From assembly GCF_052324685.1 (NCBI RefSeq), contig NW_027506910.1, positions 135,660 through 199,659 of the forward strand: a stretch of DNA of 64,000 nt, written 5' to 3'. The notes beneath the pieces are model-generated. The model was not told the origin of the DNA. It made no database searches and was given only the letters and a program-made list of their open reading frames with translations. The position numbers and the translations under genes were made by a program. Positions 13,863 to 59,144 of the stretch are shown piece by piece. This stretch comes from Brachyhypopomus gauderio (Eukaryota; Chordata; Actinopteri; Gymnotiformes; Hypopomidae). Position 1 is the first letter of the stretch. Every line of letters starts with the position of its first letter.

Positions 13863-15115
<1,253 letters not shown>

Positions 15116-23400: not shown

Positions 23401-26400
23401 CTGAAATTGAACAAATGCCATTTTTTTCAGACTGAAGTAAGATATTTAGGACATGTAGTCTCAGCAGCAGGCGTCTCCACGGATCCAGACAAGATTGCAG
23501 TAGTAGCTGAGTGGAAGGTGCCATCTACTCTGTTTCAGCTCCGTTCATTTTTGGGATTTGCATCATATTATCGCCGCTTTGTAGAGGGGTTTGCCAAGCA
23601 TGCTGCACCCTTGCATAGGCTGGTTACTAAACTGCAGCCAAAGAAGGGGCTAAAGCGACAGTTGGGGTCAGTTCAGGATTATTGGAATGCAGACTGTGAA
23701 CAAGCCTTTGCTTCCCTCAAGGCTAAGTTAGTGACTGCTCCCGTGTTGGGATATGCCGATTTCTCTGCACCATTTGTTCTTGAGGTGGATGCTAGCTCCC
23801 TAGGGTTAGGGGCAGTATTGTCACAGGAATGTGCAGAGGGGAGGAGACCGATTGCTTATGCAAGTCGAGGACTAAGGCCTACGGAGCGAAATATGAACAA
23901 CTACAGTGCCATGAAGTTGGAGCTGCTAGCATTGAAGTGGGCGGTAACTGAAAAATTTAGAGAATATCTCTTGGGAAATTCTTTTACTGTTTACACCGAC
24001 AACAACCCATTGTGCTACCTGCAGACTGCGAAGCTGGGCGCAGTGGAGCAGCGTTGGGCTGCCCAGTTGGCATTGTTTGACTTCAAGGTCATCTATCGTG
24101 CTGGTGCGACCAATAAGAATGCTGACGCCTTGTCGAGGTTGCCACTGCCCCCATCCCCAAGCAGTATGGATGAGGTGGCTGGTGGAATCGCTGTCCCACG
24201 AGGGTGTCAGGCATTGGGTGTGGCTGTTGCCTCCATGGAACCCATAGATGCGGTTCCGACTAGGAGTAAAGGAGATTTGGCCGCATTACAAGGGGAGGAT
24301 GCAGTGATAAAAAGTTTTCTGTGGTACTGGCGGCAAGGAAGGTTTCCCACGAAGATGGAGAGAGCCCAGTTAGGTGGACGGGTTTTAGAGTTGCTGCGTC
24401 AGTGGAACCGTGTTCGAGACAAGGAAGGGGTTTTGTATCGAGTAACTAGGAGTCCAGTCGGTGTAGGGGAGCGTTTACAGCTGCTGCTACCCCAGGTGCT
24501 GCATGCAGAAGTGCTTACTTCACTCCACGATAATCATGGTCACCAAGGGACAGAGCGGACTGTAACCCTTATACAAACAAGGTGCTATTGGCCGTGGATG
24601 CGCCGGGATATAGAGAAATGGTGTAATGAGTGTGGCCGGTGCATAGCAGCTAAAGCCGTACGGCCCAAGGTAAGAACTTTTTTGGGGAGCCTATTGGCTT
24701 CACAGCCATTAGACATAGTGGCTATTGATTTCACTGTATTGGAGAAATCTAGTGACGGTCGAGAGAATGTGCTGATTGTCACGGATGTATTTTCAAAGTT
24801 TGCCCAGGCCTATCCAACACGAGATCAGAAGGCAAGCACAGTGGTGCAGACCCTTGTGGAAAAATGGTTCTACACATATGGGGTACCAAAGAGAATCCAT
24901 TCTGATCAGGGGAGAAGTTTTGAAGGGGCATTGCTGAAACAGCTGTGTCAGTTGTATGGCATTGAGAAGAGTCGGTCTAGCCCCTACCATCCGGAGGGGA
25001 ACGGTCAGTGCGAGCGATTCAATAGAACACTGCATGACTTGTTAAGGACATTGCCCCCGTGTGAGAAAAGACGATGGCCGCAACACCTGTCTACAGTGGT
25101 GTTTGCTTATAACACCACTGTGCATCAATCTACGAAACATTCTCCCTATGAGCTGATGTTTGCTCGAGAGCCTCATCTCCCCATAGATTCATTGCTGGGG
25201 GGTGAACCGGAACCTGGTGAGGTGGAGGAATTGGGAGACTGGGTACAAGAACATCGGGAGAGATTGGCAGGCGTGTTCTCTCACGCCGAAAAGCAGCTGA
25301 AGGCCGCTGCTGCTTATAGAGCAAGGCATACTCACCCCCTTCCTATTGTTCCACCTGGTACAAGAGTGTATAGACGTAATCACCCTAGAGGGCGTCATAA
25401 GATTCAGGACGAATGGGGCCCAGAGATATATGAGGTTGTGCAGTGTCTAGACGAAGTGGGGACACTGTACAAAGTTAGGCGAAGCGATGGTCCTTTTTTA
25501 GAGTTGAACATCCACCGGTCAGAGTTGCGCCCCCTTCCTGTCACCAGTGTGGAGCCAGAGAGGAGGCTTCCAGTTGGCATCGGGGTGTGGCCAAGGTCAG
25601 TGGAGGTGGATCCTATGGAAGATGTGCAGGTAGTTGAAGAGTTGCCAGAGGTTTTGGCGATTCCTCAAGCAGCCTTGCCTCAAGAGACTGAGGTAAGGTC
25701 AGTGCAGGCCCCATTTGGACTGTCGGATGTGGATGTTCCAGAGGCACCACAGGGGTTATCAGGAATAGATAGTTTGGTGGAAGGGGTGCTGTTTGATTTG
25801 CCCACAGTACCATCCGAGGGAAGTAGACAGCCAGTTGGGGAGGTGGCTCCTGTGGTGGAATTAACATCCGAGCCAGTTAGAAGGTCTCATAGGGGTACAG
25901 CAGGCCACCATACAAATCCTTTCCATTTACCAAGGTCAGTAGCAAGACCGAACAATGTTGAGGAAGAGGAGGTTACAGCTCGGTTAGCACTAGTGTCCGC
26001 TCATACTGTTTTCAGGCCATGGCAGTAAGGTTGCCCACGGGACGTGGACAAACTTGTGGGGGGGTAGATGTGACGGGTAGGACCCGTCTAATGGCATTCA
26101 GTTCCCCTCCAGACCGTTTAGTGGCAACACCCACAGTGTCGGGGGTTGACGTTCGTCATGCGCAGTACGGCAGTAGCGACGTAATTCGCTGATTGGTCGT
26201 GCCTTTATATTCTGCCAGCCCTGCGGAAGAATGATTTGGTGTTTGGTGTGGTGCATATCGGTGGTTTGAGCTCGGCGCTGTGTCTGGATTCTATTGAGTA
26301 AGTTCACCTTCGTGATTGGCGGTATTGCTAAGGTTGTATATTACTAAACTGAGGTGTTGGTTAATGTTTTATAGATCGAAAGCTGTTCCAGAGAGTTTTA

Positions 26401-28237
26401 GAAGAGCACATTTTTAATACAGTGTCAAGAGACTTTATGAATTGGGGAAACAAGACGGTCGTAACAAGCCTGACGCGTTCTAGGTTGGTATGCTGGGAAT
26501 TTGTAGTGTCTGTAAATGTAATTATTAGATTTATTCATACTGATATAATTTTTATTTCATTAGACACGAATTCCTAGCAGAGGAATACCATAGCACTACC
26601 TGCTGACAACAGACCGGTCCCAGTGAACAAGTGTTTGAAGTTACATCAGCACCAGTCGCTGTTTTGTTATATTGGTTTTTTTTTTTGTGTCCGCTTGTTT
26701 GTCCTTTGTATGGTACAATTTTATTGTATTGGCCATCATTTCTGCCCTGTATTCTGATGTCAATTGGTGTCGTTGTATCATGAGCCTTGAGTAATCTCAC
26801 TTCCTAAGTGAGATTGGAAGCTGACGGAAGAGTATATTTTTAACTAGAATAAATAATTGTAGCTTTTATTCTGTGACATTTAATAACTTGGATAGTAATG
26901 TTGTTTTTTCGTTCTTTGTTTATTTTCTCCAAAGGTGCTGTTGGTGGAATGCGGTACAGTGTGGGGGTTGTGTGATAGTTTGCAGTGGTTGTGTGGGGTT
27001 ATTTGACTTTATTAGAGTGTGGTGGTTTTATTGCACATAATAACTTGCTGTGAACTATTGGTCCATGTTTTAGGGTGAAGCCCTCCACCGGAGTTGTGTG
27101 CCCACCACAGTAGCCTGGAGATTGTTTGTTATTTTTATTTTAAAATAAACATTGTTATTGTTGCCCTCTACTTGGTCGCCGTCTCTGCTCATTCAGTTGA
27201 GACCCCTGCGAGTGGGGAAGGGTTGCCCAAGTGATTGGGGGTGTATATCGGGGTGAGGTGGTTTTGCCAGGTTGCTGTGATTGTCCTGGGCTAAATTGGT
27301 ACACCTCATTGCCTGTGTTACACATGTTTGTACTTCCGTGGGTGTGGGTTGTCTGTGAGCGTGTTCGTTAGTTACACCTGTGCCTTGTCTCGAGGTCACG
27401 TGGGTCTGTGTAAATCACCTATTTAATGTGCGTTCGCGCAGTGTCGTGTGCTCGTCTTTGTCTAAAGTTCATGCCTGTGCAAGCCTCCGCATTTGCGTGC
27501 TTGCACCATCCGTGCTGGGCTTTGCGTTGCGTGAGTGAAAATAAATGTTCTGTGTGCACCGTAAGACGCTGGTCGTGTCTCCTCCTTCCTCCAGCACCAC
27601 AGCGTCACACATACTCTCTTTCAGAATGCCCGGCGAGGTTAAATAGTTAACTCAAGCTCAACAGTAACGGTGTATCTGCTGTAATCCAACAGGCTGGTAA
27701 GATTCAGGCACTGAGTCTGGAGGAGAGAGAGCAGCTCTTGTCTGTGATCCACAATGCCGAGTGGGTGGAGGTGGTGGGCAGAGATGCTATCTATAAGGAG
27801 TTCGTCTTTAAAGACTTTAACCAGGTGAGGATCACTGCATACATTGTTCTTGTGAAACGTCTCCCATGAACATCTATAGGAAATTATGTCATATTGTATC
27901 TTAGGCCTTCGGGTTCATGTCAAGAGTGGCACTACAGGCCGAGAAGATGGACCATCATCCTGAGTGGTTCAATGTTTACAATAAGGTACATGAGTCCTTG
28001 GAAACAAAATGTTACATGTCTGTGCTCATTTTTGGCATGTGCTCAGAGGTTATCTGATATGTAATGGAGAGAGTAGTTGAATAGCGTATCAACACTTGAG
28101 TAGTTGAACAGTATATCTTCTGTTATGGTCTTTCTTTCCACCAGGTTCAGATCACTCTAAGCACACATGATTGTGGAGGCCTTTCCCAGCATGATATCAC
28201 ACTTGCTACTTTCATTGACCAGGTCTCCATTTTCTGA
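17480..28237 (+). CDS. pcbd1: Pterin-4a-carbinolamine dehydratase / DCoH
   Basis: Four coding exons: 17480-17482 (ATG only), 27693-27824, 27905-27985 and 28145-28237, together 102 aa (human PCBD1 is 104). Exon 1 ends ATG|GTAAGT and exon 2 begins GCTGGTAAG, giving MAGKIQ, the PCBD1 start. The conserved active-site region is present: [56 protein letters not shown]. The enzyme dehydrates 4a-hydroxy-tetrahydropterin to recycle BH4 for aromatic amino acid hydroxylases, and the protein also acts as a dimerisation cofactor of HNF1. Some residues ([15 protein letters not shown]) recall PCBD2, so the paralogue is less certain than the family. The C-terminus ends QVSIF rather than the usual short AA/SL tail. 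Intron 1 is 10.2 kb, mostly transposon sequence; introns 2 and 3 are 80 and 159 bases. Confidence 0.88.
17800..18528. mobile_element. hAT-type nonautonomous DNA element
   Basis: The ends are an inverted TAGGGGTG (17800) and CACCCCTA (18521-18528). Flanking 8-base direct repeats ATTGTTTT (17792-17799) and ACTGTTTT (18529-18536) differ at one base, the 8-bp target duplication expected of hAT. Subterminal runs of GATTCGATT and GAATTGAAAAATTGATT lie at the two ends. No transposase frame is visible. It sits in pcbd1 intron 1. Confidence 0.8.
20543..21754 (+). CDS. Ty3/gypsy Gag-like frame
   Basis: A 403-codon frame at most. The natural start may be the internal ATG near 20654, which opens a heptad-like helix ([17 protein letters not shown]). 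A capsid-type helical domain follows in the middle, and one CCHC zinc knuckle ([14 protein letters not shown]) lies near the C-terminus, the usual nucleic-acid-binding motif of Gag. It overlaps the pol frame that follows, an arrangement the family commonly handles by frameshifting or read-through. Confidence 0.85.
   Translation: MNPGKVRRVLASVFGGVRHTFLPSLNLFWLSVPGVDPMEDWEEQIRTLTEQVQKLQADNASLHQRVSGEPRTSGQSSQSRESDPLSTPAQVTERYVYVPRERKCPRFSGNVAHDQVPVEEWVEEARQCLSTRYMTQLEQASFLYDLLDGEAKLEIKFRPAVDRSDPERVLQILLETFGCLQSHIEAQKQFFQRRQREGETLREFSHALLSLMEVVKRKSPGSATNADILVRDQFIEYVKDGMLRRELKRLVRSDPNISFLTIRGEAQRWVAEGERGATARSRAFSCDSQWEAGCDTQVVNATVSSSEMAEVKECLRKQQSQLDAILAQLANHPPLRAGTNNQQTKRLRFESDGRPICRQCNRPGHIARYCPGSEGWQATPVRERLGGGRVVVSSNTQGQPQGN
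21649..26028 (+). CDS. Ty3/gypsy Pol frame: protease, reverse transcriptase, RNase H, integrase
   Basis: Domains in order: aspartic protease ([11 protein letters not shown]), reverse transcriptase (with the YLDDVVVF catalytic motif), RNase H ([17 protein letters not shown] and [10 protein letters not shown]), integrase zinc-binding domain (a histidine pair, then CNECGRC) and integrase catalytic core ([27 protein letters not shown]). The gypsy order RT-RNase H-integrase separates it from copia. About 250 residues of low-complexity, proline- and valine-rich tail follow the integrase. The frame looks continuous. Confidence 0.93.
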   Translation: MSWVRGMAGHPSERETGRWKGSSVIQHPRAATGKLIPASMESHMLDEGCRGSGAGGSDGIGPRLVGQCPVVNVLVDGVVVPSLLDTGSMVTTITERFFFAHFQPRVQERLQYCRGLRLKAANGLDIPYCGYVELDVEVLGKRLPGMGILVVKDSGDALTQQKKGLVPGVLGMNVLTSCYRELFSQHGDRLFQSPVLRAAAPGWMPALSECQALEYVSSSGHIGSAVTPRGPAVRIPAGTLKLVPATCRQDLASCVRTVLLEASGQGQDLPPGLLVPSALLPVEKGSLVVPVVNVGHQDQWLKPRVALGQLSMASVCPAQYPLSFTEQEDSEGPIAYIQSVGVQCTSLVDLGEVCWPNLKSEEQQEAKALLEQYATVFSHETGDLGCTTLVEHEIPLVDDVPVRQRYRRLPPSQYDLVKAHIQELVECGIAKPSCSPYSSPIVVVQKKDGSIRLCVDYRQLNAKTRKDAFPLPRIEESLDALVGAKFFSTLDLASGYNQVPVAAKDQAKTAFCTPFGLFEFQRMPFGLCNAPGTFQRLMERIFGDQRFQSLLLYLDDVVVFSSTFVEHMERLRLVLERLHQNGLKLKLNKCHFFQTEVRYLGHVVSAAGVSTDPDKIAVVAEWKVPSTLFQLRSFLGFASYYRRFVEGFAKHAAPLHRLVTKLQPKKGLKRQLGSVQDYWNADCEQAFASLKAKLVTAPVLGYADFSAPFVLEVDASSLGLGAVLSQECAEGRRPIAYASRGLRPTERNMNNYSAMKLELLALKWAVTEKFREYLLGNSFTVYTDNNPLCYLQTAKLGAVEQRWAAQLALFDFKVIYRAGATNKNADALSRLPLPPSPSSMDEVAGGIAVPRGCQALGVAVASMEPIDAVPTRSKGDLAALQGEDAVIKSFLWYWRQGRFPTKMERAQLGGRVLELLRQWNRVRDKEGVLYRVTRSPVGVGERLQLLLPQVLHAEVLTSLHDNHGHQGTERTVTLIQTRCYWPWMRRDIEKWCNECGRCIAAKAVRPKVRTFLGSLLASQPLDIVAIDFTVLEKSSDGRENVLIVTDVFSKFAQAYPTRDQKASTVVQTLVEKWFYTYGVPKRIHSDQGRSFEGALLKQLCQLYGIEKSRSSPYHPEGNGQCERFNRTLHDLLRTLPPCEKRRWPQHLSTVVFAYNTTVHQSTKHSPYELMFAREPHLPIDSLLGGEPEPGEVEELGDWVQEHRERLAGVFSHAEKQLKAAAAYRARHTHPLPIVPPGTRVYRRNHPRGRHKIQDEWGPEIYEVVQCLDEVGTLYKVRRSDGPFLELNIHRSELRPLPVTSVEPERRLPVGIGVWPRSVEVDPMEDVQVVEELPEVLAIPQAALPQETEVRSVQAPFGLSDVDVPEAPQGLSGIDSLVEGVLFDLPTVPSEGSRQPVGEVAPVVELTSEPVRRSHRGTAGHHTNPFHLPRSVARPNNVEEEEVTARLALVSAHTVFRPWQ

Positions 28238-29192
28238 AACAAACTCGTCTTCTTCCCTCTCGTGATAAATCGACCTGCCAATAAATTGCCTTGACTGGAA
28301 CTGGACCAAACTTGTGAAATTGTCGTCACAGACAAACAGACTTTTCTTGAGATGCAGGGTCCATATTCGTAATAAATTGGAAAATGAATAATGTCTATAA
28401 CCATAATTTCTGTCATGGACAGTGTCAGGAAAACATTCTGCTTTAAATGCACCAATATTCACACAGTGCACATATATACCACACATAAAGCCAAGAGAGC
28501 CTATACCAAATATATATCTTTCCACTGTACACCATACACATATACAGTATAAGACAAAAATATTTTACTTATGTTAACCTGTTAATATACATTTTAATAT
28601 GCATTGTATTTATTTCCTTTCTAAGCTTTAGGCACACAAATGCCTAAACACAAAATGTTTACACCATATGCACATATGCTTAAATTAAATATACCCCTGC
28701 AAACTCACAATACAAAGCAAGAGAGTATATAACATGCATGTTCTGACTTCAACTGTACATAATCTATATCTTTTTATCTGTACTCTCATTAACCTCTTTT
28801 ACAAACTGGGTTATTAACCCTTACTCTGCCGTTCCACATACTCTAAAGGTGTTATCAGTGGTGTTTATGGACACAATCAATGAGAGATGATCTAATGTTT
28901 TTGAATTACAATAATGAATGGTTACTGGAACAAAACATCTACATGGATTTAGCAAGGGTGTATCAAATATTGCCTAAAATTGAATACATAACCTGGAGGA
29001 GAAGTTATGGCCAGTTGACACCTCTGTGAATCACCCCTGATCTTGGGTGTAGTCTAAAATCCATGCCCAAAATACAGGTTTTATTTTGAGAAGGGAGAGT
29101 CAGTGACACATAAAAACACTGGCTATAAAGTTTATTCACACATTTGTACTGTATCTTCTTCTGCAGTGTTAAGAAGTGAAGCAGGTTGTCCA
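28238..29192. other. pcbd1 3' flank and spacer between convergent genes
   Basis: AT-rich sequence between the pcbd1 stop and the kinase stop on the opposite strand. It must hold both 3' UTRs; I see no separate gene. Confidence 0.5.
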
Positions 29193-34622
<5,430 letters not shown>

Positions 34623-35355
34623 TTATATACCCTCATCTGTTGTGCCGTCGTTATGACGACAGAGCAGGTATTATGACGTCATGTGGAATTGTGTCAATAT
34701 TTTATTTATTTATTTATTTTTATTGAAGTAAAAAAAAAAAACAATTACAACAAAAATGGCATCAAGATAATGTACTTTTGAACGTAGACCATAACAGGTT
34801 ATTACAATATATTAAAATTAACGGCGTTCGTTAATTTGATACTCTTATCGGGCGATATAAAAATGATCGCCGTTAATCTATTCTTAAAGTTGGGTTGGGA
34901 ACTGGGTCAAAATGGGTAAGCAAACTATGATGACTTTCAACTTGATAGTTTAGTTCGGCTGTATTCCTAACCAAATTGCACAGTAGGGGCGAGGACGAGT
35001 TTTCAAACCTGTGAATTACAAATCGTTCGTGTGTTTACATGGATGCCGCCACGAAGTCGCCAGGTTTGCTTCATGGAAAATTCATTTTTAGGAACGTAAA
35101 GTGTTACCGGAGCGGAGCTCGGAGCGGTCGTTTTCTGCATGGTCCTAGTGCTAGATTCGTCGCTATTTAAATATTTCTTTTTAACCGTTAAAACTGCAGA
35201 GGACCAAAACCGGCGTTTGAAAAAGTACCCCCCAAATTACGTCCGTGAGGTTAAATGTACTAAATGTTAGCTTACATTTCAAATATCATGTTTAGCTGAA
35301 TAAACATGCTATCAACCCCTTTTAATGTACAGTATGTAGGCTTACAAATTCATGT
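34623..35355. other. Spacer upstream of the kinase gene
   Basis: It contains an A-rich tract (34729-34741) and a repeat fragment near 34810-34880 that shares a stretch of more than 20 bases (GATACTCTTATCGGGCGATA) with 16810. I see no gene. The kinase-gene promoter should lie here. Confidence 0.45.
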
Positions 35356-36060
35356 TTAACCCTCTAAGTTACTAGCCACTAGATACCCTGTCACCTGCAC
35401 TGCTGAATACAATGCTGTGGCCCAACCTGTGTAAATGTGTTTAGAGAATGACACAACATAGATTAATTAAAATGTATATATTTAAATTTAATTTAAAAAA
35501 CAATCTTTTGAAGATACATTGTTGGTGTATGTAAATACTGGCAGCAGATTTGTTTTGAGAAATTGATGTTTGTGAAATCTGTTTGTGAAAATTTGTGTTC
35601 ATCTGAAGTTACATTAGGTATTCTAGATTTTGAAGTTTAGATACTTTATTGATCACAAAGCTGTGTTCTTCACATTTAGCCATGCACTTTGCAAATGCAA
35701 GTTAAAACTCCACTATGCAAAAAATAGACCAGATATTAACAAGATGCTGAAACACTGCCACCTTCTCTGGGCCTGAGATAATTTAAGATACTTTGCCACT
35801 ATCACAGTACATCTTAAATGATCTCAGAACCAGAGAATATCTGATATCAGGCCTTATTCTAGTTACCAACGGTGCTGATGGAAGTCTATTTTCCTGCAGA
35901 GTTCAACTCCAGCCTTCACATAACCTGTGATCTTGCTAACAAGGTCTACTCAAAATTGACCCAAAGTTGTTTGGGCGGCTCAGATGTTGTCAGGAAATGT
36001 GATCTGCAAGAACGTAAATATACAAGAACAGAACTGTAGTAACTTTTTGTATGTTTGTGT

Positions 36061-36896
36061 CACTAGGGTCAGAGCAGACCAGGGATGTGAAAATGTGGAT
36101 ATAGCTAGATGGATGTTCATGGTCCGTGGCTGTGGCAGCTTCATGTCAGGCAAAAGTGTTCATAATCAAAGGTATCACCACCTTATACATAAATGTAAAA
36201 GGCACCCAAGTATAAACTGTTTATATATACACATTTGTTTGTACCAGTTGTATTGCTCAGAGCTGTGATCATGCATGTTGACCTCACTGGGAATAAAAGC
36301 TTGCTATATGTATGTGTGTGTTAAACAGAACGTCTGTGGAGAGACCTGTGGGTGGCTGTCACTAGCACCTACTACAATGTGCTCCACAGTCTGGAGGAAG
36401 GATTGCTGGATCCTGCTGACAGCAGTCACCTGTTTGCTGCAAAGAACGTCTTCTTGCCCCGGCTCCGAGAAGACCTACAAAGTTTTTCTGCGACATGGGA
36501 CAACCACCCACTTCGCACTGAACAAAATCTAAACCCCAACCAACTGTGGGAAACGGGCTGCATCCAGAATCCTGTCCCCTCACCAGACTGTTCTGAGGTA
36601 TCTTCAGTATAATCATTATGGTTTTAATTTTTGTGTTGGCAACTGACTGCTGTGTTAAAACTGTCACTATAAAAAAAACCTGAATGCTTCTTCTTTATAG
36701 GGCCTCTTTGATCTTGAGACTGAATGCCAACAGGGGGCGCTGGTGGCAGGGATCATGTTGCCATCGGTCACTTGTCCTCTCAACAGGCCTAGAAGACCTT
36801 GCTGGAGTGATTAACCCCTGTGGGCCATCACAAAACCATGGCCAAGACATTTACATCTCAGTCTTGAATAATGTTTTGCATGGAAACACAGTGTAA
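36061..36896 (+). pseudogene. Integrase-like (DDE core) gene remnant, arm A
   Basis: Exon-like blocks at 36066-36171 ([15 protein letters not shown] and [11 protein letters not shown]), about 36330-36598 (ERLWRDLWVAV, LPRLREDLQSF, HPLRTEQNL) and about 36701-36896. This is the integrase core domain found in many fish genes of unknown role: the D of RADQG and the E of ERLWRD fit two acids of the DDE triad. The upstream part with the first catalytic acid is not seen. The frame runs toward the centre of the inverted repeat, tail to tail with the HECT-like remnant. It looks like an incomplete, decayed copy. Confidence 0.65.
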
Positions 36897-37265
36897 ATGT
36901 GAATGTGACAAACTGTTTAACTAAACGTTTTAGTAGTATAACAGTATTTAAGTGAATAGTTAATAAAAAGAATAAGCAAAGAGACAGTTGTCTGCAAAAA
37001 TACTTCAGTATTTTAATGTATTAGTCTTACAAAATTGAGCATAAAATGACTGACAGCTGGTACTGCTCATATTTGAACAATTTCATTTGTTATTCTTTGT
37101 TTTTTTTTTACAATTTAATCTGAACAATTTATTTTATATACAGAGGCAAAATATATTTTTTAGTTTTGCCTAATATTCTAACCCTGTTTACACCCATTTC
37201 AGTTCAAGAACTAATTGATGAGCTAGGGAAACTAAATATGCAGTGGTCATCCAGGACCAGGGTTT

Positions 37266-37604
37266 TGTAATGCTGGGTGTGGGTGGAAGGAGGAGACACG
37301 GATCCTTGCTTTTGCAGCCAATGTCACTGCTTTATTCAACATAAGCGCAAGACAGCGCACACAGAAACACCTACACATACACGTAACGTGGAGAATCAGA
37401 CAACGACAAGCACAAGACACTGCGCGAACGCACATTAAATAGACAGACAACATGAGCCCCGAGTGATTACGAGACGATCCACAGGTGGGACGGATGAACA
37501 CACACAAACAAACCACACCCACGAGAATCCACTGACGCAGACGGCAAGACGCAGACGACGTAAACACACGCCCACAGGGAAGGGTCCGGAGCTGTTCCGT
37601 GACA
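37266..37604 (-). mobile_element. Solo LTR (family S, copy 3), inverted, in arm A
   Basis: On the minus strand it begins TGTCACGGAACAGC and ends CAGCATTACA, with the same TATTTAATGTGCG and a nearby AATAAA. Flanks GGTTT (37261-37265) and AGTTT (37605-37609) are a one-mismatch 5-base duplication. Arm B, near 44635-44645, keeps the unoccupied site (reverse complement GGGTTTAGC). Confidence 0.87.
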
Positions 37605-37809
37605 AGTTTAGCTTACAATGATACCAAATGGTTATTGTACTCTACTGAACTGTGGCAATACAACAGAGGTTTTAAACACTGGTTTACGTCAACAATGTCA
37701 CACAGTTGTTTTACCCTCTTATTATTGTTTTAACGACATGAATACAATAGAACAGAGTAGGGCTTGTATCCCTGATAGTAACTGTGTTGCTAAAAGCTAG
37801 AATGGGAAG

Positions 37810-39540
37810 TTAGATCCTGTAGAATCCTGCCCCATATCTTATTGAAATCAACATATTTTTCTGAAACTCATCAAAATTGTTATGATGAGCTGTAGGGAAG
37901 GTAATGGTGTTTGTACATGCACTCACAACTGGATAGCACACAGTATGGTGTGGCATGCGGTCTAGGCAAGAATGGTCAAAACGGATTGCTATTCTAAATC
38001 TTTGTCGCTCTGACAGAAGCAGGTGCCTGTGGGATTGTCCTGTAAGCCGCAGCACGTCAGGGACAGTCAGCTTCTTTTGGCCTTCAGGATCAGCATCTTA
38101 TAAAACATTATACAAGTGAAATCAATTGATCAAACCAGTTACCACCATATGCATTCCTGCAAATCTAACAGCCCCCAATCCCTACCTTAAATACCTCTAT
38201 TAATAAATGCAGAAATGTGGAAATGCATAACTAAATGTAAAAATACAGAAATAAATGTAGAAATAAGTTTAGCACAAATAACAGTTGTATGAAAATGCAC
38301 ACAACATTAAAGACATTTATTTAAACATATAGGAGGATATACTAAGTATAGTCACATTCTATGCATAGCCTCTGCAATCACTAAGCTAAATGTCTTTAGC
38401 ATGAATGAGAGGAGGTGCATACCCTCAAGGTCAATCAGGAAATCTTGAAAGTAGTTAAGGATCTCCCTTTCTTTCAAATGCTTTACAGTACCACCATCAC
38501 TCACTTTTGGTGCAAGACTTGAAAGAATGTAGTGATGATCCATCTATACAAAGAGCAGGAAACAGGAAAGCAGGAAAGCAAAATGGAGTCAAAAACAATG
38601 TTATCTGCAGATGACTAAACAATCAGAAACCACCCTGGTGTTGGTGTTTATCTCTCTACATATATCAGAAAAGCAGAAACCAGTGCTCAAATGTCTACAG
38701 TTCAATTATCAAAGTACTGGGGGGCTCTTGGTTGTGTTTCATTCATGTTTTGGTGAGTGATCACTGCCTAACAATCCTGCCCAATTTTCACTGCCACAGT
38801 AACAAAGAATGCTTGTGAAACATGTTACAGTCTACCTTCTCCACATTGCCAATCACAAAAAGACCACGGTAATGCTCCTGGTTTTTCTCAAAGATGTTCA
38901 CAAAGTTATAGACATCTAGACCTTCTCGTATCTGCCTCAGCACCGCAAGTCTTTTCATGGTTGCATGCAGCAGAATCACCCTGAGCATGGACATGAAAAT
39001 GACAAGGAGAATATTAAAAGTAAAAATGTATACTACAGAATATACAGAAATTCCTGTAAGTGTTACAGTGTTCAGTGGTTCTAAAATCAGTCAAATTATT
39101 TTGATTTAGGAAATGGACGCCCTAAGACCTACTTGTGAAACACAGCCTTGCATTATAACACATACCTAATAATGCTCGATTTGCTCTCAACATTTATTTG
39201 ACCAGTGTAGCTACAACTGATGATTTCTTCAATGCAAGACGTAATGCTTCCTCAACCTGCAGTTCAGTTAATTTTTCCACAAACTATTAAAACTCCAACA
39301 AAATTTGTGCTACTGAAATAAAATAAAGGAATAAACAGGAACAAACCCTTCATCAGTGGGGACAACTCCAAGTTATGTACATTGTCTTTGGTTACAGTCA
39401 TCAGCTCACCAGTCTCCAAGAAGTAATAGCACCATTCCTGCAGGACACAAGGAGCTGGAGCTCCCTGAGCAAGGCTTACTGCAAAGACTTCTCCTGCAAC
39501 TTTATTAATATAAAAAACAAACAACATCTAAAACCTTACG
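37810..39540 (-). pseudogene. HECT-like E3 ubiquitin ligase gene remnant, arm A
   Basis: Minus-strand exon-like blocks: about 39515-39340 (FAVSLAQGAPAPCVLQEWCY and LETGELMTV), about 39255-39190, 38980-38836 (ILLHATMKRLAVLRQIREGL), 38543-38423 (LKEREILNYFQDFLIDLEG) and 38096-37810 (LRLTGQSHRHLLLSERQRF, then VVSACTNTITFPTAHHNNF). The last block matches the C-lobe end of HECT-type domains in G2E3-like fish proteins; the Cys in SACTN sits where the catalytic Cys of STCFN lies. Such proteins are numerous in fish. The N-lobe start is absent from this arm, and the copy looks broken. Confidence 0.65.
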
Positions 39541-39602
39541 GAAAAACATCTATAGCAAAAATTCTCTTTTCAGAACACGGATCAGTTACAGAACACAGGA
39601 TC

Positions 39603-40036
39603 CAGGGTTGCCAACTTTTGACGTTCGCTTGGAGTGAGATTTTAACCTGGAGCCGGTGGCGAGTGTACGAGTGTATTTTGTTGAGCGGGGGGGGGGGTGA
39701 TGATCTAAGCAGTGCTCAGTTTCTGTGAATGAAACATGAAAAACATGGATGTCAGTGTTCAAATCAGGATGAACAATGCCTTTGACTTTGGCGAACGAAA
39801 GTTGTTGAGCGGGGGGGGGTGACGAACGTAAAATGGACACAGATTCAGTGTTATATCGCTGGTGGATGGCGCCAGAGCTAGCGAACTAGTAACGTATTGA
39901 ATCATATATGTGGTTCTGAGGTAAATAAACTGGATATTTTTTTTCGGCGTGAGATATCGGAAGTGTGGCGTGAGAGCGTGTGAAAACGGTCAAATGCGTG
40001 TGTCTCACGCTCAATGCGTGAGAGTTGGCAACCCTG
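39603..40036. mobile_element. MITE-like element with CAGGGTTGCCAAC ends at the inner edge of arm A
   Basis: The inverted ends are CAGGGTTGCCAACTTTT and, on the other side, AGAGTTGGCAACCCTG, 434 bases in all. A GTTGAGCGGGGGGGGGTGA motif occurs twice inside. There is no coding capacity. Arm A stops matching arm B within a base or two of its left end. No clear target duplication is visible. Confidence 0.65.
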
Positions 40037-41353
40037 TATCTAGGTTAACTAGCTAGATAGGTTAACTAACTAGGTTAGCTAACTAATTCCGAAGCTGACT
40101 AGTGACAAGCTGCATTTTATTAAGCACACAGTGGGTTTGATCTGTGTTTTGAGTCTGAGACGTGTGTTTTTAACCAGCTATCAGATAGCTCCACAAACAA
40201 TGTCATCACCGTTTACATAGTTAACTACCGTTACCTTTCTCCTTGAAAAAACGCCGTATGTCCACTTTCACCGTCAGCTACCTGCAACCAGAGCCGTATA
40301 GGGGGTGGGGGTGGGCCACGGGGGTGGGCTCTCCTCCGCGCCCGAAAAACCAGCAAGCTGATTGGCTGTTTCTCCTGAAAGGCGGAACTTTATCCTTGAA
40401 GCGGCACTATGATTGGCGTTAAGAGATTTCCTATTCTCACAGCAGCATTGGCCTCCTCATTAATAGTACAGCTGAGCGAAAAAATTCGGGACTACTCGAT
40501 AACACAGGTCTGCCACATAAAAATTGTTTAAAATTTAATAAGTGATTTTTATAGTATTTTCAACGCTGATTTCGGCAAAATTAGTGAAAAAATTCCATCA
40601 CGTACAGTTATTTCACAAACTGCTTGTCTAGTTTTAGCTTTTTCGATATTTTTTATAAATAGTTCAGTACTCTAGTAAGTTTGAATTTTGGTTTTTAAGA
40701 TCTCCACAAACTGTTATTTAGCCTGATAGCGGACTACTGGTGGATGTTGAAGAGAGATGATCCTGAACGAGTCCACAGCCGGAAAAGCAATAAAAGAAGC
40801 TTCGACAGAAGTGTGTGGCGAACGTAACACTCGTGACGGAGTGTTTTTTCAATAGCCCTGAAATATATGCTACGGTTTTGTTTTGGTCCGTATCCAGTTA
40901 ATCAGGAATGAGATTGGGTCCGGATCCGGACCACGGTCCGCCAGTTGAGTACCCCTGCCTTAAAGGTTACCTTCCTTGGCGAGCCTGGGATCGACACAGG
41001 AGCCTTGCGTGTTGAATTCCTGACTGGTGAGATTTTCTGTTTAATCTAGAACAATACAGCTAAATTGTTTGGAAGTGACAGTGGTAAAATATAAAATAGC
41101 ATACATTTTTTGTGTGTTCTTAAAGGACATGCGAAATTTTGTTTTAGAGATGATTTCCGGTATAGAAGACAGGCTGATTGAAGGGCAGCAAGGAAAAGAA
41201 AAAATACCCAAGTATTCAGTAAATGATCTCTACAGTGGTATTTTCAGGTATGTGATGCAATATGATTTTTGTTTATTTTAACACTGATGGTGTAAGTCGC
41301 TTCACATCACTGTTGCCACTTGGCATTCCTTTTTATGGCATCTAAGTAATTCT
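40037..41353 (+). other. Central spacer of the inverted repeat, with HECT-like 5' exons
   Basis: The left half (40037-40960) is noncoding and ends in GTTGAGTACCCCTG, typical of a hAT element end. Two exon-like blocks follow on the plus strand: about 40964-41026 (VTFLGEPGIDTGALRVEFL, matching the HECT N-lobe motif GEPGxDxGGxxREF) and 41126-41247 (FVLEMISGIEDRLIEGQQG, IPKYSVNDLYSG). They belong to the HECT-like gene that continues into arm B, so arm B's copy is more complete at its 5' end than arm A's. Confidence 0.6.
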
Positions 41354-41475
41354 TGGATCCTGTGTTCTGTAACTGATCCGTGTTCTGAAAAGAGAATTTT
41401 TGCTATAGATGTTTTTCCGTAAGGCTTTAGATGTTGTTTGTTTTTTATATTCATAAAGTTGCAGGAGAAGTCTTT

Positions 41476-43207
41476 TGGTTTCAGGCAAAGCACTAAAATT
41501 ATGTGCGGACCAATTAGCAGGTGTATTTCTGGACATTTTTAACATCTCCCTACAGCAGGCTGTAGTCCTCGTCTGCCTTAAATCATCTGTCATTGTACCA
41601 GTGCCTAAAAAGTCTGCAATAACTTGTCTCAATGACTACCCACCAGTTGCTCTGACCCCTGTGATTGCAAAATGCTTTGAGAGACTCATCCTGAAACATA
41701 TTGGGGACAGTATTCCACTCAGTTTGGACAAACACCAGTTTGCCTACAGGGGGAATCGTTCCACAGAGGATGCCGTCTCCATCGCACTCCACACAGGCCT
41801 GTCTCACCTGGAGCAACCTGACACATATGTCAGGATGTTATTCATCGACTATAGCTCTGCGTTCAACACAATAATCCCTCATAAGCTGGTGGCCAAACTC
41901 TGCAATCTAGGACTGTCCCCCTCACTGTGCTCATGGATCAAAGACTTTCTCACTAACAGACCACAAGTGGTGAGAATAGGGGACCACGCATCGTCCCAAA
42001 TCATTTTAAACACTGGTACACCGCAGGGCTGTGTGCTCAGTCCAGTCCTCTTCACACTTTTCACCCATGACTGCACCCCCATCCACGCCTCCAACACATT
42101 TGTGAAGTACGCTGACGACACCGTAGTGATAGGCTGCATCTCCAACAACGATGAAGCTCACTACAGAGAGGAGATTCAGCACCTGGCACGGTGGTGCTCA
42201 GACAACAACCTAGCTCTGAACACCACCAAAACTAAAGAAATCATCATGGACTACCGCACAGTTAAAAGAACATGCACACGCCCCTCTACTCCTAGACGGA
42301 GATGAAGTGGAATGTGTGCACAGCATTAAATACCTCGGACTCCACATCACAGCTGATCTCACCTGGTCTCTAAATACCTCACACCTCATAAAGAAGGCCC
42401 ATCAGAGACTCTTCTTTCTGAGGAAACTAAAGCAGTCTGGACTCACCCCACAACTGCTTGTGAACTTTTACACCAGCACAATCGAGAGCGTCCTCTGTCT
42501 CTGCATGACTGTATGGTACTCCAGCTGTACAGCACAAGAGAGGAAGGACCTGACCCGGGTACAGCGCCAGAACAGCACAGAGGATCATAGGGAGTACACT
42601 CACAGATCTGGACTCTGTGTATGCTGGCCGCCTTCATAAAAAAGCCAGCAACATGATCAAGGACCCCACCCACCCAGGACACCATCTCTTTATTCCTCTA
42701 CCTTCAGGACGAAGATACAGGACAATAATAACCCGGACAAACAGGCTGAGGAACAGTTTCTTTCCCAGAGCTGTAACATCCATCACTCCCACTGCAAACC
42801 CAAACCTTTAGGACCTATTGCACTACACTATTAATATAAGCACTATTGCACTATTTCTCATTTGCAACTTTGCACCCAAAACTTGTATCACTGCTATTAA
42901 TATTTTTTGTTTAGTTATAATACTTTTAACACTATACATAATGTAAATACACTATGTTATACCATGCCACATAATCAAAACAGTCATACCATCATGCCAT
43001 AATTGCCTCACCTACACCATGTTGCTGATACAAACCAGTATCAGTATCTGTCCCGACAGACTAGTTGAAATGTTTTTATGTATATATGTTGTCTCGCACT
43101 GTTTCTATTTTAATCTTGTTATGTGACCAAGAGGTACCCCTCAGAATCTCGTTGTATCATGTTCAATGACAATAAATTCTACTCTACTCTACTCTACTCT
43201 ACTCTAC
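41476..43207 (+). mobile_element. 5'-truncated LINE, Rex1/Babar-like
   Basis: Reverse transcriptase of the CR1/Rex1 group: [64 protein letters not shown] and the YADDTVV catalytic box, through about 42305. There the frame shifts and continues with IKYLGLHITADLTWS and RLFFLRKLKQSGL, then a 3' UTR ending CAATGACAATAAATT and an (ACTCT)n tail. TCTTT lies on both sides (41471-41475 and 43208-43212) and arm A keeps the unoccupied site. The endonuclease part is missing. I am less sure of the clade than of the class. Confidence 0.85.
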
Positions 43208-43584
43208 TCTTTGCAGTAAGCCTTGCTCAGGGAGCTCCATCTCCTTGTGTCCTGCAGGAATGGTGCTATTACTTCTTGGAGACTGGTGAGCTGATGACTG
43301 TAACCAAAGACAATGTACATAACTTGGAGTTGTCCCCACTGATAAAAAAGGGTTTGTTCCTGTTTATTCCTTTATTTTATTTCAGTAGCACAAATTTTGT
43401 TGGCGTTTTAATAGTTTGTGGAAAAATTAACTGAACTGCAGGTTGAGGAAGCAGAAGACCTTACGTCTTGCATTGAAGAAATCATTAGTTATGGCTACAC
43501 TGGTCAAATAAATGTTGAGAGCAAATCGAGCATTATTAGATATGTGTTATAATGCAAGGCTGTGTTTCACAAGTATCCTTAGGG

Positions 43585-43858
43585 CAGGGCTATTCAACTG
43601 GCGCCCTGCGGGCCAGAACCGGCCCTTTAATGAATTTGTACCGGCCCGCGGCCCATATCTCATCATAAATAATAATAAATATTTGATAAACCGCCGTAAA
43701 AATTTTACGACACTGTGTCGTAATTTACGTTCGGATTTACGTTCACCACACTCCTCCCCCCCATGACAGTATTGGTATAGGTCTGAAAATTGTCTGGCCC
43801 ACAGGTCAGAGCTCTCTGCCAAATCTGGCCCACAGAAAAATATAGTTGAATAGCCCTG
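43585..43858. mobile_element. hAT-type MITE in arm B
   Basis: It begins CAGGGCTATTCAACTGGCG and ends GTTGAATAGCCCTG. Flanks CCTTAGGG (43577-43584) and CACTAGGG (43859-43866) are an imperfect 8-base duplication. Arm A has a single TCTTAGGG here, the unoccupied site. The internal CCGGCCCGCGGCCC is typical of this fish hAT group. Confidence 0.8.
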
Positions 43859-45004
43859 CACTAGGGCGTCCATTTCCTAAATCAAAATAATTTGACTGAT
43901 TTTAGAACCACTGATGTAAGGCACACAGCTGTAACACTTACAGGAATTTCTGTCTATTCTGTAGTATACATTTTTACTTTTAATATTCTTCTTGTCATTT
44001 TCATATCCATGCTCAGGGCGATTCTGTTGCATGCAACCATGAAAAGACTTCCGGTAAGGATTGGGGGCTGTTAGATTTGCAGGAATGCATATGGTGATAA
44101 CTGGTTTGATCAATTGATTTCACTTGTATTATGTTTTATAAGATGCTGATCCTGAAGGCCAAAAGAAGCTGACTGTCCCTGACGTGCTGCAGCTGCGGCT
44201 TACAGGACAATCCCACAGGCACCTGCTTCTGTCAGAGCGACAAAGATTTAGAATAGCAATCCGTTTTGACCATTCTTGCCTAGACCGCATGCCACACCAT
44301 ACTGTGTGCTATCCAGTTGTGAGTGCATGTACAAACACCATTACCTTCCCTACAGCTCATCATAACAATTTTGATGAGTTTCAGAAAAATATGTTGATTT
44401 CAATAAGATATGGGGCAGGATTCTACAGGATCTAACTTCCCATTCTAGCTTTTAGCAACACAGTTACTATCAGGGATACAAGCCCTACTCTGTTCTATTG
44501 TATTCATGTCGTTAAAACAATAATAAGAGGGTAAAACAACTGTGTGACATTGTTGACGTAAACCAGTGTTTAAAACCTCTGTTGTATTGCCACAGTTCAG
44601 TAGAGTACAATAACCATTTGGTATCATTGTAAGCTAAACCCTGGTCCTGGATGACCACTGCATATTTAGTTTCCATAGCTCATCAATTAGTTCTTGAACT
44701 GAAATGGGTGTAAACAGGGTTAGAATATTAGGCAAAACTAAAAAATATATTTTGCCTCTGTATATAAAATAAATTGTTCAGATTAAATTGTAAAAAAAAA
44801 ACAAAGAATAACAAATGAAATTGTTCAAATATGAGCAGTACCAGCTGTCAGTCATTTTATGCTCAATTTTGTAAGACTAATACATTAAAATATTGAAGTA
44901 TTTTTGCAGACAACTGTCTCTTTGCTTATTCTTTTTATTAACTATTCACTTAAATACTGTTGTACTACTAAAACTTTTAGTTAAACAGTTTGTCACATTC
45001 ACAT

Positions 45005-45850
45005 TTACACTGTGTTTCCATGCAAAACATAATTCAAGACTGAGATGTAAATGTCTTGGCCATGGTTTTGTGATGGCCCACAGGGGTTAATCACTCCAGC
45101 AAGGTCTTCTAGGCCAGTTGAGAGGACAAGTGACCGATGGCAACATGATCCCTGCCGCCAGCGCCCCCTGTTGGCATTCAGTCTCAAGATCAAAGAGGCC
45201 CTATAAAGAAGAAGCATTCAGGTTTATTATAGTGACAGTTTTAACACAGCAGTCAGTTGCCAACACAAAAATTAAAACCATAATGATTATACTGAAGATA
45301 CCTCAGAACAGTCTGGTGAGGGGACAGGATTCTGGATGCAGCCCGTTTCCCACAGTTGGTTGGGGGTTTAGATTTTGCTCAGTGCGAAGTGGGTGGTTGT
45401 CCCATGTCGCAGAAAAACTTTGTAGGTCTTCTCGGAGCCGGGGCAAGAAGACATTCTTTGCAGCAAACAGGTGACTGCTGTCAGCAGGATCCAGCAATCC
45501 TTCTTCCTCCAGACTGTGGAGCACATTGTAGTAGGTGCTAGTGACAGCCACCCACAGGTCTCTCCACAGACGCTCTGTTCTGTTTAACACACATACATAT
45601 AGCAAGCTTTTATGCCCAGTGAGGTCAACATGCATGATCACAGCTCTGAGCAATACAACTGGTACAAACAAATGTGTATATATAAACAGTTTATACTTGG
45701 GTGCCTTTTACATTTATGTATAAGGTGGTGATACATTTGATTATGAACACTTTTGCCTGACATGAAGCTGCCACAGCCACGAACCATGAACATCCATCTA
45801 GCTATATCCACATTTTCACATCCCTGGTCTGCTCTGGCCCTAGTCACACA
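45005..45850 (-). pseudogene. Integrase-like (DDE core) gene remnant, arm B
   Basis: The mirror image of the arm A copy: [15 protein letters not shown] near 45830, then ERLWRDLWVAV through HPLRTEQNL (about 45575-45330) and the LILRLNANRGRW block (about 45200-45010). It is nearly identical to arm A in the parts I compared. It too looks incomplete. Confidence 0.65.
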
Positions 45851-46553
45851 AACATACAAAAAGTTACTACAGTTCTGTTCTTGGATATTTACATTCTTGC
45901 AGATCACATTTCCTGACAACATCTGAGCCGGCCAAACAACTTTGGGTCAATTTTGAGTAGACCTTGTTAGCAAGATCACAGGTTATGTGAAAGCTGGAGT
46001 TGAACTCTGCAGGAAAATAGACTTCCATCAGCACCGTTGGTAACTAGAATAAGGCCTGATATCAGATATTCTCTGGCTCTGAGATCATTTAAGATGTACT
46101 GTGATAGTGGAAAAGTATCTTAAATTATCTCAGGCCCAGAGAAGGTGGCAGTGTTTCAGCATCTTGTTAATATCTGGTCTATTTTTTGCATAGTGGAGTT
46201 TTAACTTGCATTTGCAAAGTGCATGGCTAAATGTGAAGAACACAGCTTTGTGATCAATAAAGTATCTAAACTTCAAAATCTAGAATACCTAATGTAACTT
46301 CAGATGAACACAAATTTTCACAAACATCAGATTTCACAAATATCAATTTCTTAAAACAAATCTGCTGCCAGTATTCACATACACCAACAATGTATCTTCA
46401 AAAGATTGTTTTTTAAATTAAATTTAAATATATACATTTTAATTAATCTATGTTGTGTCATTCTCTAAACACATTTACACAGGTTGGGCCACAGCATTGT
46501 ATTCAGCAGTGCAGGTGACAGGGTATCTAGTGGCTAGTAACTTAGAGGGTTAA

Positions 46554-47514
46554 CTGAATAGTCAAAAAACTTGTTTCTATGAGAAGATTTTCAGTTTTGA
46601 GGATGCAAATATCATTCAAATAAGCTACTTTTGCATTTTAATATTTTTATACAATCATCCATTTCATAAAATAAACATTTCAAACATAGTTTTGCTTTCT
46701 TCTACTTTGAGTGTGGGTAGCCCCTTTCATGATTTTTTCCCCTACTATAGTATCCTATAGTTGGTCCACTTTAAGTGGTCAAATGTAATATGCAATAAAG
46801 CTATCACAAACCTATTTGGAACACCATGATTCTCCACTGACTGGGGCAGTAGATGCCTTGTTTTTTGTGGCTGCTCCTAGGTACATGATCTATATGAACA
46901 GAACACAGCATAGTTAAATTAAATATTAAAAATGAGGTTATATCAATGTGCTTGTTAGTACACAGTCAAGTCAGAATATTATGACAACACCTTGTATCTA
47001 TACCCTTTGTGGATCAGTTCCACAGATCATATAGGAGCCCTTTGTAGCTCTGCCATATCACACTGTAGTATATTTGTTCTGGGGTGGGACGCGATTAAAA
47101 AAATGATCAAATTAATTAGAAGCTTTGTAATTAATTATTCGAAATTAATCGCATTTTAATCACATTTCAGTATTTAAAATGAGAAATATTAATTTGAAAG
47201 TTTGAATGATGAATGAATCAATGAACATAAGCATAAACTTCAACATCTTGTTTATTTTTCCACCAGTCTACTACACAGACCAATAGATGAGTGCAGAAAA
47301 CAGAGTAAACAGTTTTCAGAACACTGGAAATTCTGACCAAATATTTTTAATTTTGGGAGTTTTGCTCCAGGATATTGGAAGAATAAGAATAACTGAAGTA
47401 AATCAGAAGACGTTTTTTAATACCATTTAAGATGGTAGCCTTTTTCTTTAATTTCCCAGGCCTCTGCCACAGCCATAAAGTCCTCTGCACAGGCATCTCC
47501 ATAGTGCCTAGAAG
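46554..47514. other. Spacer right of the inverted repeat
   Basis: AT-rich, no gene seen. About 47085-47170 (GACGCGATTAAAAAAATGAT, GAAATTAATCGCATTTTAAT) resembles a common fish hAT-type repeat. Confidence 0.4.
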
Positions 47515-56893: not shown

Positions 56894-59144
56894 ATGCGCG
56901 CACGTGCGTGCGCGTGTGTGTGTGTGTGCGTGTGTGCGTGTGTGTGTGTGTGTGCGTGTGTGTGTGTGTGCGTGTGTGCGTGTGTGTGTGTGTGTGCGTG
57001 CGTGTGTGCGTGTGTGTGTGTGTGTGTGCGTGTGTGTGTGTGCGTGCGTGCGTGTGTGTGTGTGTGTGCACGCCTGTGTCCGTGTGTGTCTTCAGAGGTA
57101 AAGTTTTGCAGGAGAGTTTAATTAAGCTGGTGGAAGCGTGTGGCGACTCCTCCCACAATATGGACCGCTGGCTGAGTAAGCTGGAGAACTCCAAGTGGCT
57201 GTCGCACGTTCACAGCGCCCTGTCCACCGCCGGCCTGGTGGCAGAGTGTGTGGAGAGGTGAGCGCTATCTGGGATCCGTTGCTCTGGTCTGGAAGGTGCT
57301 GCTCTCAGCTGCTTACATGTGTTTACTGACTGTTTGCTTGAATCCTATTTCTTAAGCGATGTGTCGTTATTGCGGTAGAGTAGAGAAACTCACGTCTTTT
57401 TCGTGGGATATTATTCATGTCTGGGCTCTTTTATTTGCATCTGGTCCTTGCTTTTGTCAGTACTCTACTTTAAGGCTGGCCAAACCTTTTAGTGCAGTGG
57501 GACATACATGAACAAGATAAGACAAGAAGAAAACCATACGTCAAATGGATCTCTCAATCAATCAATCAAATAAAGTTTATTTGTATAGCGCTTTTAACAA
57601 CTCAAGTTGTCGCAAAGCAGCTTTACAGGGTTTACAAGGTTAACAATACTATGGGTCCAGAACCCTAATGAGCAAGCCAAAGGCGACAGTGGCGAGGAAA
57701 AACTCCCTATGATGGTGAGGAATAGGAAGAAACCTCGGGAGAACCAAGACTCAAAAGGGAACCCATCCTCCATTGGGCGGCCCGTTAACACACAAATACA
57801 CAAGTCACACATAATTCACACAATCAGACTAGGTAAAAGGTAGAATTGAAAGTTCTGGGTTTTGATATTGTCACTGTAAATGTCCGTTGATGAATGCCAG
57901 GCTTTTATTCCGTGTCGGAGCAGTGATGCTGGTATTGTAGGCTCCGACTGCAGTGTTACTCCCCAGATGAACCCCGGTATCAGCACATCCACCGGCAGCC
58001 AGACCATCCCCCAGGTGCCTGCAGGTGCCTGTATCCAATCGTCTTGGGTAGAGCCATGCAAGAAGATAGATAATACAGACTGAGTGGACATGAATTTAAA
58101 CCACCGTTGATTTAAATGTACGTAGCTCACGTGCCAGTGATCAGCATGTGGCTCCGGCAGACTAATCTATAGCAGCATAACTAAAGGGAGAGGTTCAGAG
58201 GTGACCACAGGCATGAGGGCTCACTGAGACATTGCTTTCCAGTCAAGTCATAGTCACAAATAGAGTGATGCCAAGACACAGCTGGATGACAGCATCAACA
58301 TCTCAGATCACCAGAAATCTCAACGTCTGGGGGCCCCCAAGCCCCTACACCTTACAAGGGGAATTTTAGCTGAAGGCTTGACTAAACAGGTGAGTCTTAA
58401 GTCTAGATTTAAAGATTGGAACTGTGTCAGAGTCTCGGATTGGAGCTGGAAGGCTATTCCATAATTGAGGGGCTTTAAAAGAGAAAGCTCTGCCTCCGGC
58501 TGTAGTTTTACTAATTTTTGGAACTACGAGAAATCCAGCATTTTGGGAGCGCAAAGGGCGAGATGGGTTGTAGTAATCAATGAGTTCACTCAGATATTGT
58601 GGGGCAAGATCGTCTCCAAGAGACGATCTAACATCTTGCTCTGTGACTCATGGCACTGGTCTTAAATGTTTTTTTTTCCTTGTTTGTTTGTTGTTTGTGC
58701 GTAGGGATGGTCACTCGGTGCTAGTTCATGGTTTTGAGGGGACAGATACCACATTGCTCGTGACCTCATTGGCTCAGCTCATTCTTGACCCCGCCTCCAG
58801 AACATTCAGAGGCTTCCTCCAGCTGTTGGAGAGAGAGTGGGTACAGGTGAGGACTTGTGTCTCTGCTTAATAGATTCTTAACACCTATGAATTATACAGT
58901 AATAATCAATGTCTTTTATTATCCATCCATCATTGTGTGATACGTGTAGTAACTGGGCGTGTACACCCTTCTCCTGTGTGTGTGTGTGGGTGGGTGTGTG
59001 AATGCGTGTGGGTGTGTGTGTGTGTGTGTGCGTGTGTGTGCATGTGTGTGTGTGTGTGTGCGCGTGTGTGTGTGTGTGTGCGCCTGTGTGTGTGTGTGTG
59101 TGCGTGCGTGCGCGCGTGTGCGTGCGTGTGTGTGTGTGTGTGCG

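What the first reader, a model, noticed from the sequence alone, without database searches (positions are those of the whole stretch)
35356..46553. TTAA-bounded giant inverted repeat, a candidate transposon with 4-5 kb ends
Two arms of several kb are reverse complements, and similarity ends on both outer sides exactly at TTAA followed inward by CCCTCTAAG. A TTAA target duplication plus CCC termini is the signature of piggyBac-type insertion. If real, the whole 11.2 kb block is one insertion with unusually long inverted ends. It would carry an integrase-like and a HECT-like gene in each arm.
Basis: partly seen in the sequence, partly recalled or inferred. Interest (0 to 1): 0.85.

Follow-up and report, generated by a model that had tools for sequence, protein, structure and literature searches.

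The report
Inverted duplication of a dead transposon
An electric-fish chromosome carries two mirror-image copies of a decayed jumping gene; the matching four-letter borders that made the pair look like one giant transposon fall inside one of its genes, so this is most likely a DNA-copying accident rather than a new mobile element.

Summary
The palindrome is real: arms 35356-39604 and 41354-46553 differ by 1.1-1.4% substitutions, carry private insertions, and both end at TTAA-CCCTCTAAG. Each arm holds exons of an integrase (Pfam rva_4) and a HECT gene. They resemble an IS3EU-type element: a complete relative on C11 has ~1-kb TIRs, TATGGGG..CCCCATA termini and a 6-bp duplication.

TTAA is not the family's end. 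The two other close copies found (C10, C1) continue through it, and the next upstream integrase exon lies 258-336 bp outside the right border, so TTAA sits in an intron.

I favour one replication-type inverted duplication with TTAAC microhomology and a partly templated 40-base insert. A TTAA-transposase hop is a minority rival; the genome search for piggyBac transposases did not complete. A related element on C6 forms a second giant palindrome (5.2-kb arms, 99.8%) whose left border is not at TTAA.

The parts
35356..39604 (+). left arm of the palindrome (integrase reads inward +, HECT 3' exons read outward -)
41354..46553 (-). right arm, reverse complement of left arm
39605..41353 (.). spacer; holds a MITE-like element 39603-40037 (CAGGGTTGCCAAC inverted ends) and upstream HECT-like exons 40963-41025 and 41117-41248 (+)
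36062..36881 (+). integrase (rva_4) exons of left arm: 36062-36184, 36328-36600, 36728-36881
45020..45844 (-). integrase exons of right arm: 45722-45841, 45327-45584, 45020-45118
46811..46889 (-). next upstream integrase exon (P0105 residues 247-277, in two frameshifted pieces), OUTSIDE the right border: shows that TTAA is intronic
37813..38982 (-). HECT 3' exons of left arm (37813-38097 and 38830-38982 aligned)
44015..44432 (+). HECT 3' exons of right arm (44015-44056 fragment, 44142-44432)
41476..43207 (+). LINE insertion (RVT_1) private to the right arm
37267..37605 (.). SINE-like insertion private to the left arm
34818..35355 (+). X: left part of a high-copy repeat, ends at the TTAA
46550..46560 (+). 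TTAACTGAATA: TTAA plus the 7 bases that follow it in other X copies
46561..46593 (+). remaining 33 bases of the 40-base insert relative to C1/C10, source unknown
46594..47080 (+). C: continuation of the integrase gene region; of the matches scored, only C10 and C1 also hold it
47081..47514 (+). high-copy interspersed repeat
28816..34817 (-). protein-kinase-C-like gene remnant (28816-32793) and a downstream piece D1 (34333-34817), shared with C10 and (D1) C1

Best explanation
The 11.2-kb block is an inverted duplication inside an old, truncated IS3EU-type DNA transposon (integrase plus HECT gene), itself lying in a segmental duplication next to a PKC-like gene. Shown: the palindrome; its integrase/HECT content; the continuation of the integrase gene past the TTAA; the shared divergence of arm and right flank from C10; and X-repeat sequence at both edges. 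Inferred: during one replication-based repair event, synthesis passed from the X repeat into the element at a TTAAC microhomology (deleting the flank C on the left), copied inward, folded back to copy the element outward, slipped at the same TTAA into X for 7 bases (CTGAATA), added 33 more bases, and returned to its template exactly where it had left it. The TTAA borders are template-switch sites, not transposon ends.
For: C10 and C1 copies align through the TTAA into window 46594-47452 and 46590-47514. The integrase exon for residues 247-277 lies beyond the TTAA in C10 (E 6e-11), C1 (2e-9) and the window (1.6e-4, frameshifted); E-values are for the small set of loci searched. Arm and flank C have similar divergence: from C10 3.3-3.4% and 3.5%, from C1 4.0-4.2% and 3.6%, with the arms 1.1% apart. 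The D1|X junction is derived: in 5 of 5 distant D1 copies read plus C10 and C1, D1 continues ATAGAATATAA instead. Left junction overlap TTAAC; CTGAATA at right as in X. A related element at C6 is inverted-duplicated with a left border not at TTAA.
Against: The junction also satisfies what a TTAA target duplication in X would look like, with CCC ends. The 33-base filler has no identified source. A return to the template at exactly the TTAA is a further coincidence for the copying model. Only three loci of this subfamily were found, so the ancestral state of the 40 bases is inferred, not seen. A second internal TTAACC breakpoint exists in a related copy (C1:43.9 Mb), which might hint that such sites are preferred breakpoints.
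Confidence: 0.7

Rival explanations
1. The palindrome, once formed (with flank C on both sides), was cut at both TTAAs by a piggyBac-like transposase acting on its identical cryptic CCCTCTAAG ends and re-inserted nearby into the X repeat at TTAA; the donor gap was repaired with loss of the left C and the rest of X, joined by a 33-base filler to C exactly at the donor TTAA.
For: It accounts for all junctions in one event.
Against: The borders lie in an intron of an IS3EU-type integrase gene, so no piggyBac end is expected there; the outer 100 bases were found only at the two arms, C10 and C1; none of 10 translated frames scanned (of the 102 listed) matched a piggyBac transposase.
Confidence: 0.13
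2. Two independent small events at one TTAA: a deletion between the TTAA in X and the TTAA of the left arm (TTAAC microhomology), and an unrelated 40-base indel on the right; the CTGAATA match to X is chance.
For: Needs only ordinary deletions and insertions; no similarity to X at the junction beyond 11 bases.
Against: A 7-base match has chance 1 in 16384 at equal base frequencies; of 2680 TTAA sites counted in the stretches read (both strands, overlapping families), 1 is followed by CTGAATA, and the window's right junction is itself in that set.
Confidence: 0.12
3. One reading: a genuine TTAA transposon with 4-5-kb terminal inverted repeats.
For: TTAA-CCC edges and TTAA on both sides.
Against: Other copies run through the edge; the integrase gene crosses it; no inverted partner of the terminus in the stretches read at C10 (29.4 kb) or C1 (18.7 kb).
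Confidence: 0.03

Closest known systems
IS3EU superfamily of DNA transposons (passages read in PMC10045372 and PMC12730594)
   Same: Relatives at C11, C6 and C1:43.9 Mb share the terminus TATGGGG (4 ends read); C11 has both ends, TATGGGG..CCCCATA (TA..TA, fits TAYGG..CCRTA), a 6-bp target duplication (CGAATC), ~1-kb TIRs and an integrase-type transposase convergent with a second gene.
   Different: The second gene is a HECT ubiquitin-ligase gene (alpha-kinase and TET/JBP genes in the fungal families of the passages read); the window copy has lost both termini and its first integrase exons. Placement rests on one complete copy, not on a tree.
piggyBac
   Same: TTAA at both edges followed by CCC; X repeat shows TTAA at the site.
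   Different: Edges are intronic; no piggyBac transposase seen in the frames scanned; 11 kb versus 1.37-3.52 kb in the bee survey PMC10140906 (passages read).
Inverted duplications made by template switching (MMBIR/fold-back; recalled, no call)
   Same: Inverted copies with a spacer, microhomology and short inserts at junctions.
   Different: Not shown experimentally; breakpoints partly obscured by later insertions.

Membership tests
piggyBac | TTAA target duplication | tested here: inconclusive
   TTAA on both sides within an X repeat whose other copies have one TTAA there, but X similarity stops 7 bases to the right, and C1/C10 show the TTAA (TTAG in C10) is internal
piggyBac | element ends at the TTAA in other copies | tested here: not met
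   C10 and C1 continue through it
piggyBac | DDE_Tnp_1_7 transposase | tested here: inconclusive
   10 frames of the 102 listed were scanned without such a match; a genome search for PF13843 did not complete
IS3EU | rve-like integrase as transposase | tested here: met
   PF24764 (rva_4, Integrase core domain) in both arms; homolog P0119 also reaches PF00665 rve at 32.3 bits, just under its cut-off of 32.6. HTH matches in homologs are below cut-off
IS3EU | TA..TA termini and 6-bp duplication | tested here: not met
   Not met in the window copy: no TATGGGGTC-type end in the window, C10 or C1 stretches (the copy is truncated). Met in relative C11: TATGGGG..CCCCATA, CGAATC. So the window block is a fragment, not a complete member
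IS3EU | phylogenetic placement with Repbase IS3EU transposases | not tested
   Repbase sequences not available here

The most novel reading that the evidence does not exclude
Inverted duplication turned non-terminal DNA into a new TTAA-mobilised unit: two identical cryptic TTAA-CCC ends inside a dead IS3EU-type gene were recognised by a TTAA-specific transposase and the 11.2-kb palindrome hopped into the X repeat, i.e. birth of a transposon by palindrome formation.
Probability: 0.1. Interest if true: 0.75.

Novelty: new member of a known kind. Interest (0 to 1): 0.3.

Why it matters
It corrects an attractive misreading: TTAA-CCC edges and an apparent TTAA duplication can be imitated by a rearrangement whose breakpoint lies in an intron of another transposon. 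The by-product is a HECT-carrying IS3EU-type element in a knifefish with readable ends, and two giant palindromes of its integrase side (window and C6), which could serve to study how long inverted duplications arise in vertebrate chromosomes.

Tried and rejected
Assembly mirror artefact: set aside, the arms have private insertions and 1.1-1.4% divergence. TTAACCAATC as terminus of the related family (my own first reading): rejected after fetching further flanks; the C6 right end, both C11 ends and the left end at C1:43.9 Mb continue 433-441 bases to TATGGGG. C and D as one larger element: D proved to be PKC-like gene DNA; A (window 57572-58427) matches an insertion within the C10 and C1 copies and was set aside as an interspersed repeat (its copy number was not searched). 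X similarity in the right flank beyond 11 bases: with 5 of the 6 X copies (L052 left out), scores were within shuffles except L051 (reached by 1 and 4 of 200 shuffles), whose best alignment starts 362 bases into the flank, away from the junction. PDB search with an integrase homolog: no match. Copies at C19 and C2:28.5 Mb: 9.9 kb each read, no usable ends. Pfam did not call HECT in the joined window exons; the protein search did. Literature searches: listings only, used to find the three papers of which passages were read.
Full report
Setting. The window is G000:C66:135660-199659 of a 796.5-Mb assembly. Contig lengths equal those given for Brachyhypopomus gauderio proteins found by homology (C6 34,476,401; C14 23,980,762), so the source is very probably this electric knifefish.

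Observation. The inverted repeat is real: left arm 35356-39604 against right arm 46553-41354, five collinear pieces, 44 mismatches over 3204 columns. Private insertions in each arm make an assembly mirror very unlikely. Both outer edges read TTAACCCTCTAAG. On four shared segments the arms differ at 27 of 2475 positions, and from the C10 and C1 copies by 3.3-4.2%; C10 and C1 differ by 2.0%. So the two arms are each other's closest relatives.

Gene content. Both arms hold exons of an integrase of Pfam family PF24764, rva_4. They also hold exons of a HECT-like gene; among its 40 relatives found (E down to 2.5e-112) many are named 'HECT domain-containing' or 'G2/M phase-specific E3 ubiquitin-protein ligase' and several carry Pfam HECT. 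Pfam itself gave no hit for the joined window exons, but did for the corresponding gene of a relative (E 4.4e-8). Integrase and HECT are convergent. In Austrofundulus limnaeus a related integrase (LOC106510817, P0215) and a related HECT-like protein (LOC106510815, P0131) are listed on contigs of the same length, 28,673 bases, so probably one contig.

What family. One search gave 29 matches to the outer right-arm segment, most of them single integrase exons at other loci. Of the loci read, G000:C11:24.52-24.54 Mb is complete: inverted ends of 1018 columns at 98%, termini TATGGGG..CCCCATA, and CGAATC directly repeated on both sides. C1:43.9 Mb (left end) and C6 (right end) share the TATGGGG terminus. 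TA..TA termini with usually 6-bp duplications are those of IS3EU (passages of PMC10045372), and TAYGG..CCRTA with 6 bp is reported for fungal IS3EU (passages of PMC12730594). A full-text search found no held paper with both 'IS3EU' and 'HECT'. The assignment rests on one complete copy; no IS3EU reference sequence was available for a tree.

TTAA is not the end. The outer 100 bases were found only at the two arms, C10:696.9 kb and C1:23.55 Mb (the tool warns that it skips very common words). In both of the latter, similarity runs through the TTAA into window 46594-47452 and 46590-47514, and no inverted partner of the terminus is found in the stretches read. Integrase homologs place an upstream exon (P0105 residues 247-277) beyond the TTAA: C10 E 6e-11, C1 2e-9, window 46889-46811 1.6e-4 in two frameshifted pieces (small search set); the next exon (277-318) lies inside the arms. 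The TTAA is thus in an intron. Arm and flank C are similarly diverged (from C10 3.3-3.4% and 3.5%; from C1 4.0-4.2% and 3.6%), so their adjacency is ancestral.

What the TTAA edges are. Left of the block lies X (34818-35355), part of a repeat; the query D1+X had 2872 first-look candidates, D1 alone 451. In 6 of 6 fetched copies X continues CATGT-TTAA-CTGAA, in 5 of them CTGAATA. Right of the block the window reads TTAA-CTGAATA and then leaves X. Of 40 matches scored to the joined flanks (1065 candidates; the 39 other than the window all lie on contig C1), 38 match exactly through TTAACTGAATA and stop, and one runs 3 bases further at 98%. This looks like a TTAA target duplication. But 33 bases later the right flank is C, starting exactly at the base that follows TTAA in C1, so the window has 40 bases that C1 lacks (36 if the last four, TTCA, are aligned with TTAA). 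The D1|X junction is also derived: in 5 of 5 distant D1 copies read and in C10 and C1, D1 continues ATAGAATATAA.

Reading. One copying event with switches at TTAA explains the left junction (TTAAC shared by X and the arm), the loss of C on the left, the palindrome, and the 7 X-like bases on the right. A TTAA-transposase hop of an already formed palindrome with faulty donor repair also explains them, but requires piggyBac-like recognition of intronic sequence. Two unrelated events require a 1-in-16384 match; of 2680 TTAA sites counted, 1 is followed by CTGAATA, and the window junction is in that set.

Parallel case. C6 holds a second giant palindrome of the related element: arms 6523788-6529011 and 6537283-6542496, 5224 columns at 99.77%, integrase in each arm, left border 141 bases outside the internal TTAA. 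It was read because one search showed an inverted integrase pair there. C10, C1:23.55 Mb, C11 and C1:43.9 Mb showed no such palindrome in the stretches read, nor did 9.9 kb at C19; C2:28.5 Mb was not compared with itself. So 2 of 7 self-compared loci, one of them picked for it, are inverted duplications of the integrase side, and TTAA borders are not a rule. Whether the long TIRs promote this, for example by switching between ends during gap repair, is a guess.

Noticed in passing
window 19181-27322: Nearly intact Ty3/gypsy-type LTR retrotransposon: 1255-bp LTRs 99.92% identical, RT, RNase H and integrase in a 1459-aa ORF, CATG on both sides: a recent insertion.
   Followed up: partly
G000:C6:6523788-6542496 (L039, L040, L044, L045): Second giant palindrome with integrase in both 5.2-kb arms at 99.77% identity, related element family.
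   Followed up: partly
window 28816-32793; matches to D1 on C7 27.0-27.2 Mb, C1 48.9-49.2 Mb, C21 5.49-5.68 Mb, C17: PKC-like gene remnant; the piece D1 beside it recurs in closely spaced groups on several chromosomes, suggesting tandem arrays of a duplicated gene region. Whether the kinase gene is in them was not checked.
   Followed up: no
G000:C140:164885-285884: X repeat copies recur, many at 6-8-kb spacing, suggesting a tandem array.
   Followed up: no
window 33425-34106: 30-bp GC-rich minisatellite, 22 copies, between the PKC-like remnant and D1.
   Followed up: no
G000:C1:43.9 Mb (L042 and L043 reverse complement, position 14602): The HECT-side end of this IS3EU-type copy is truncated exactly at an internal TTAACC, a second TTAA breakpoint among these elements.
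   Followed up: partly
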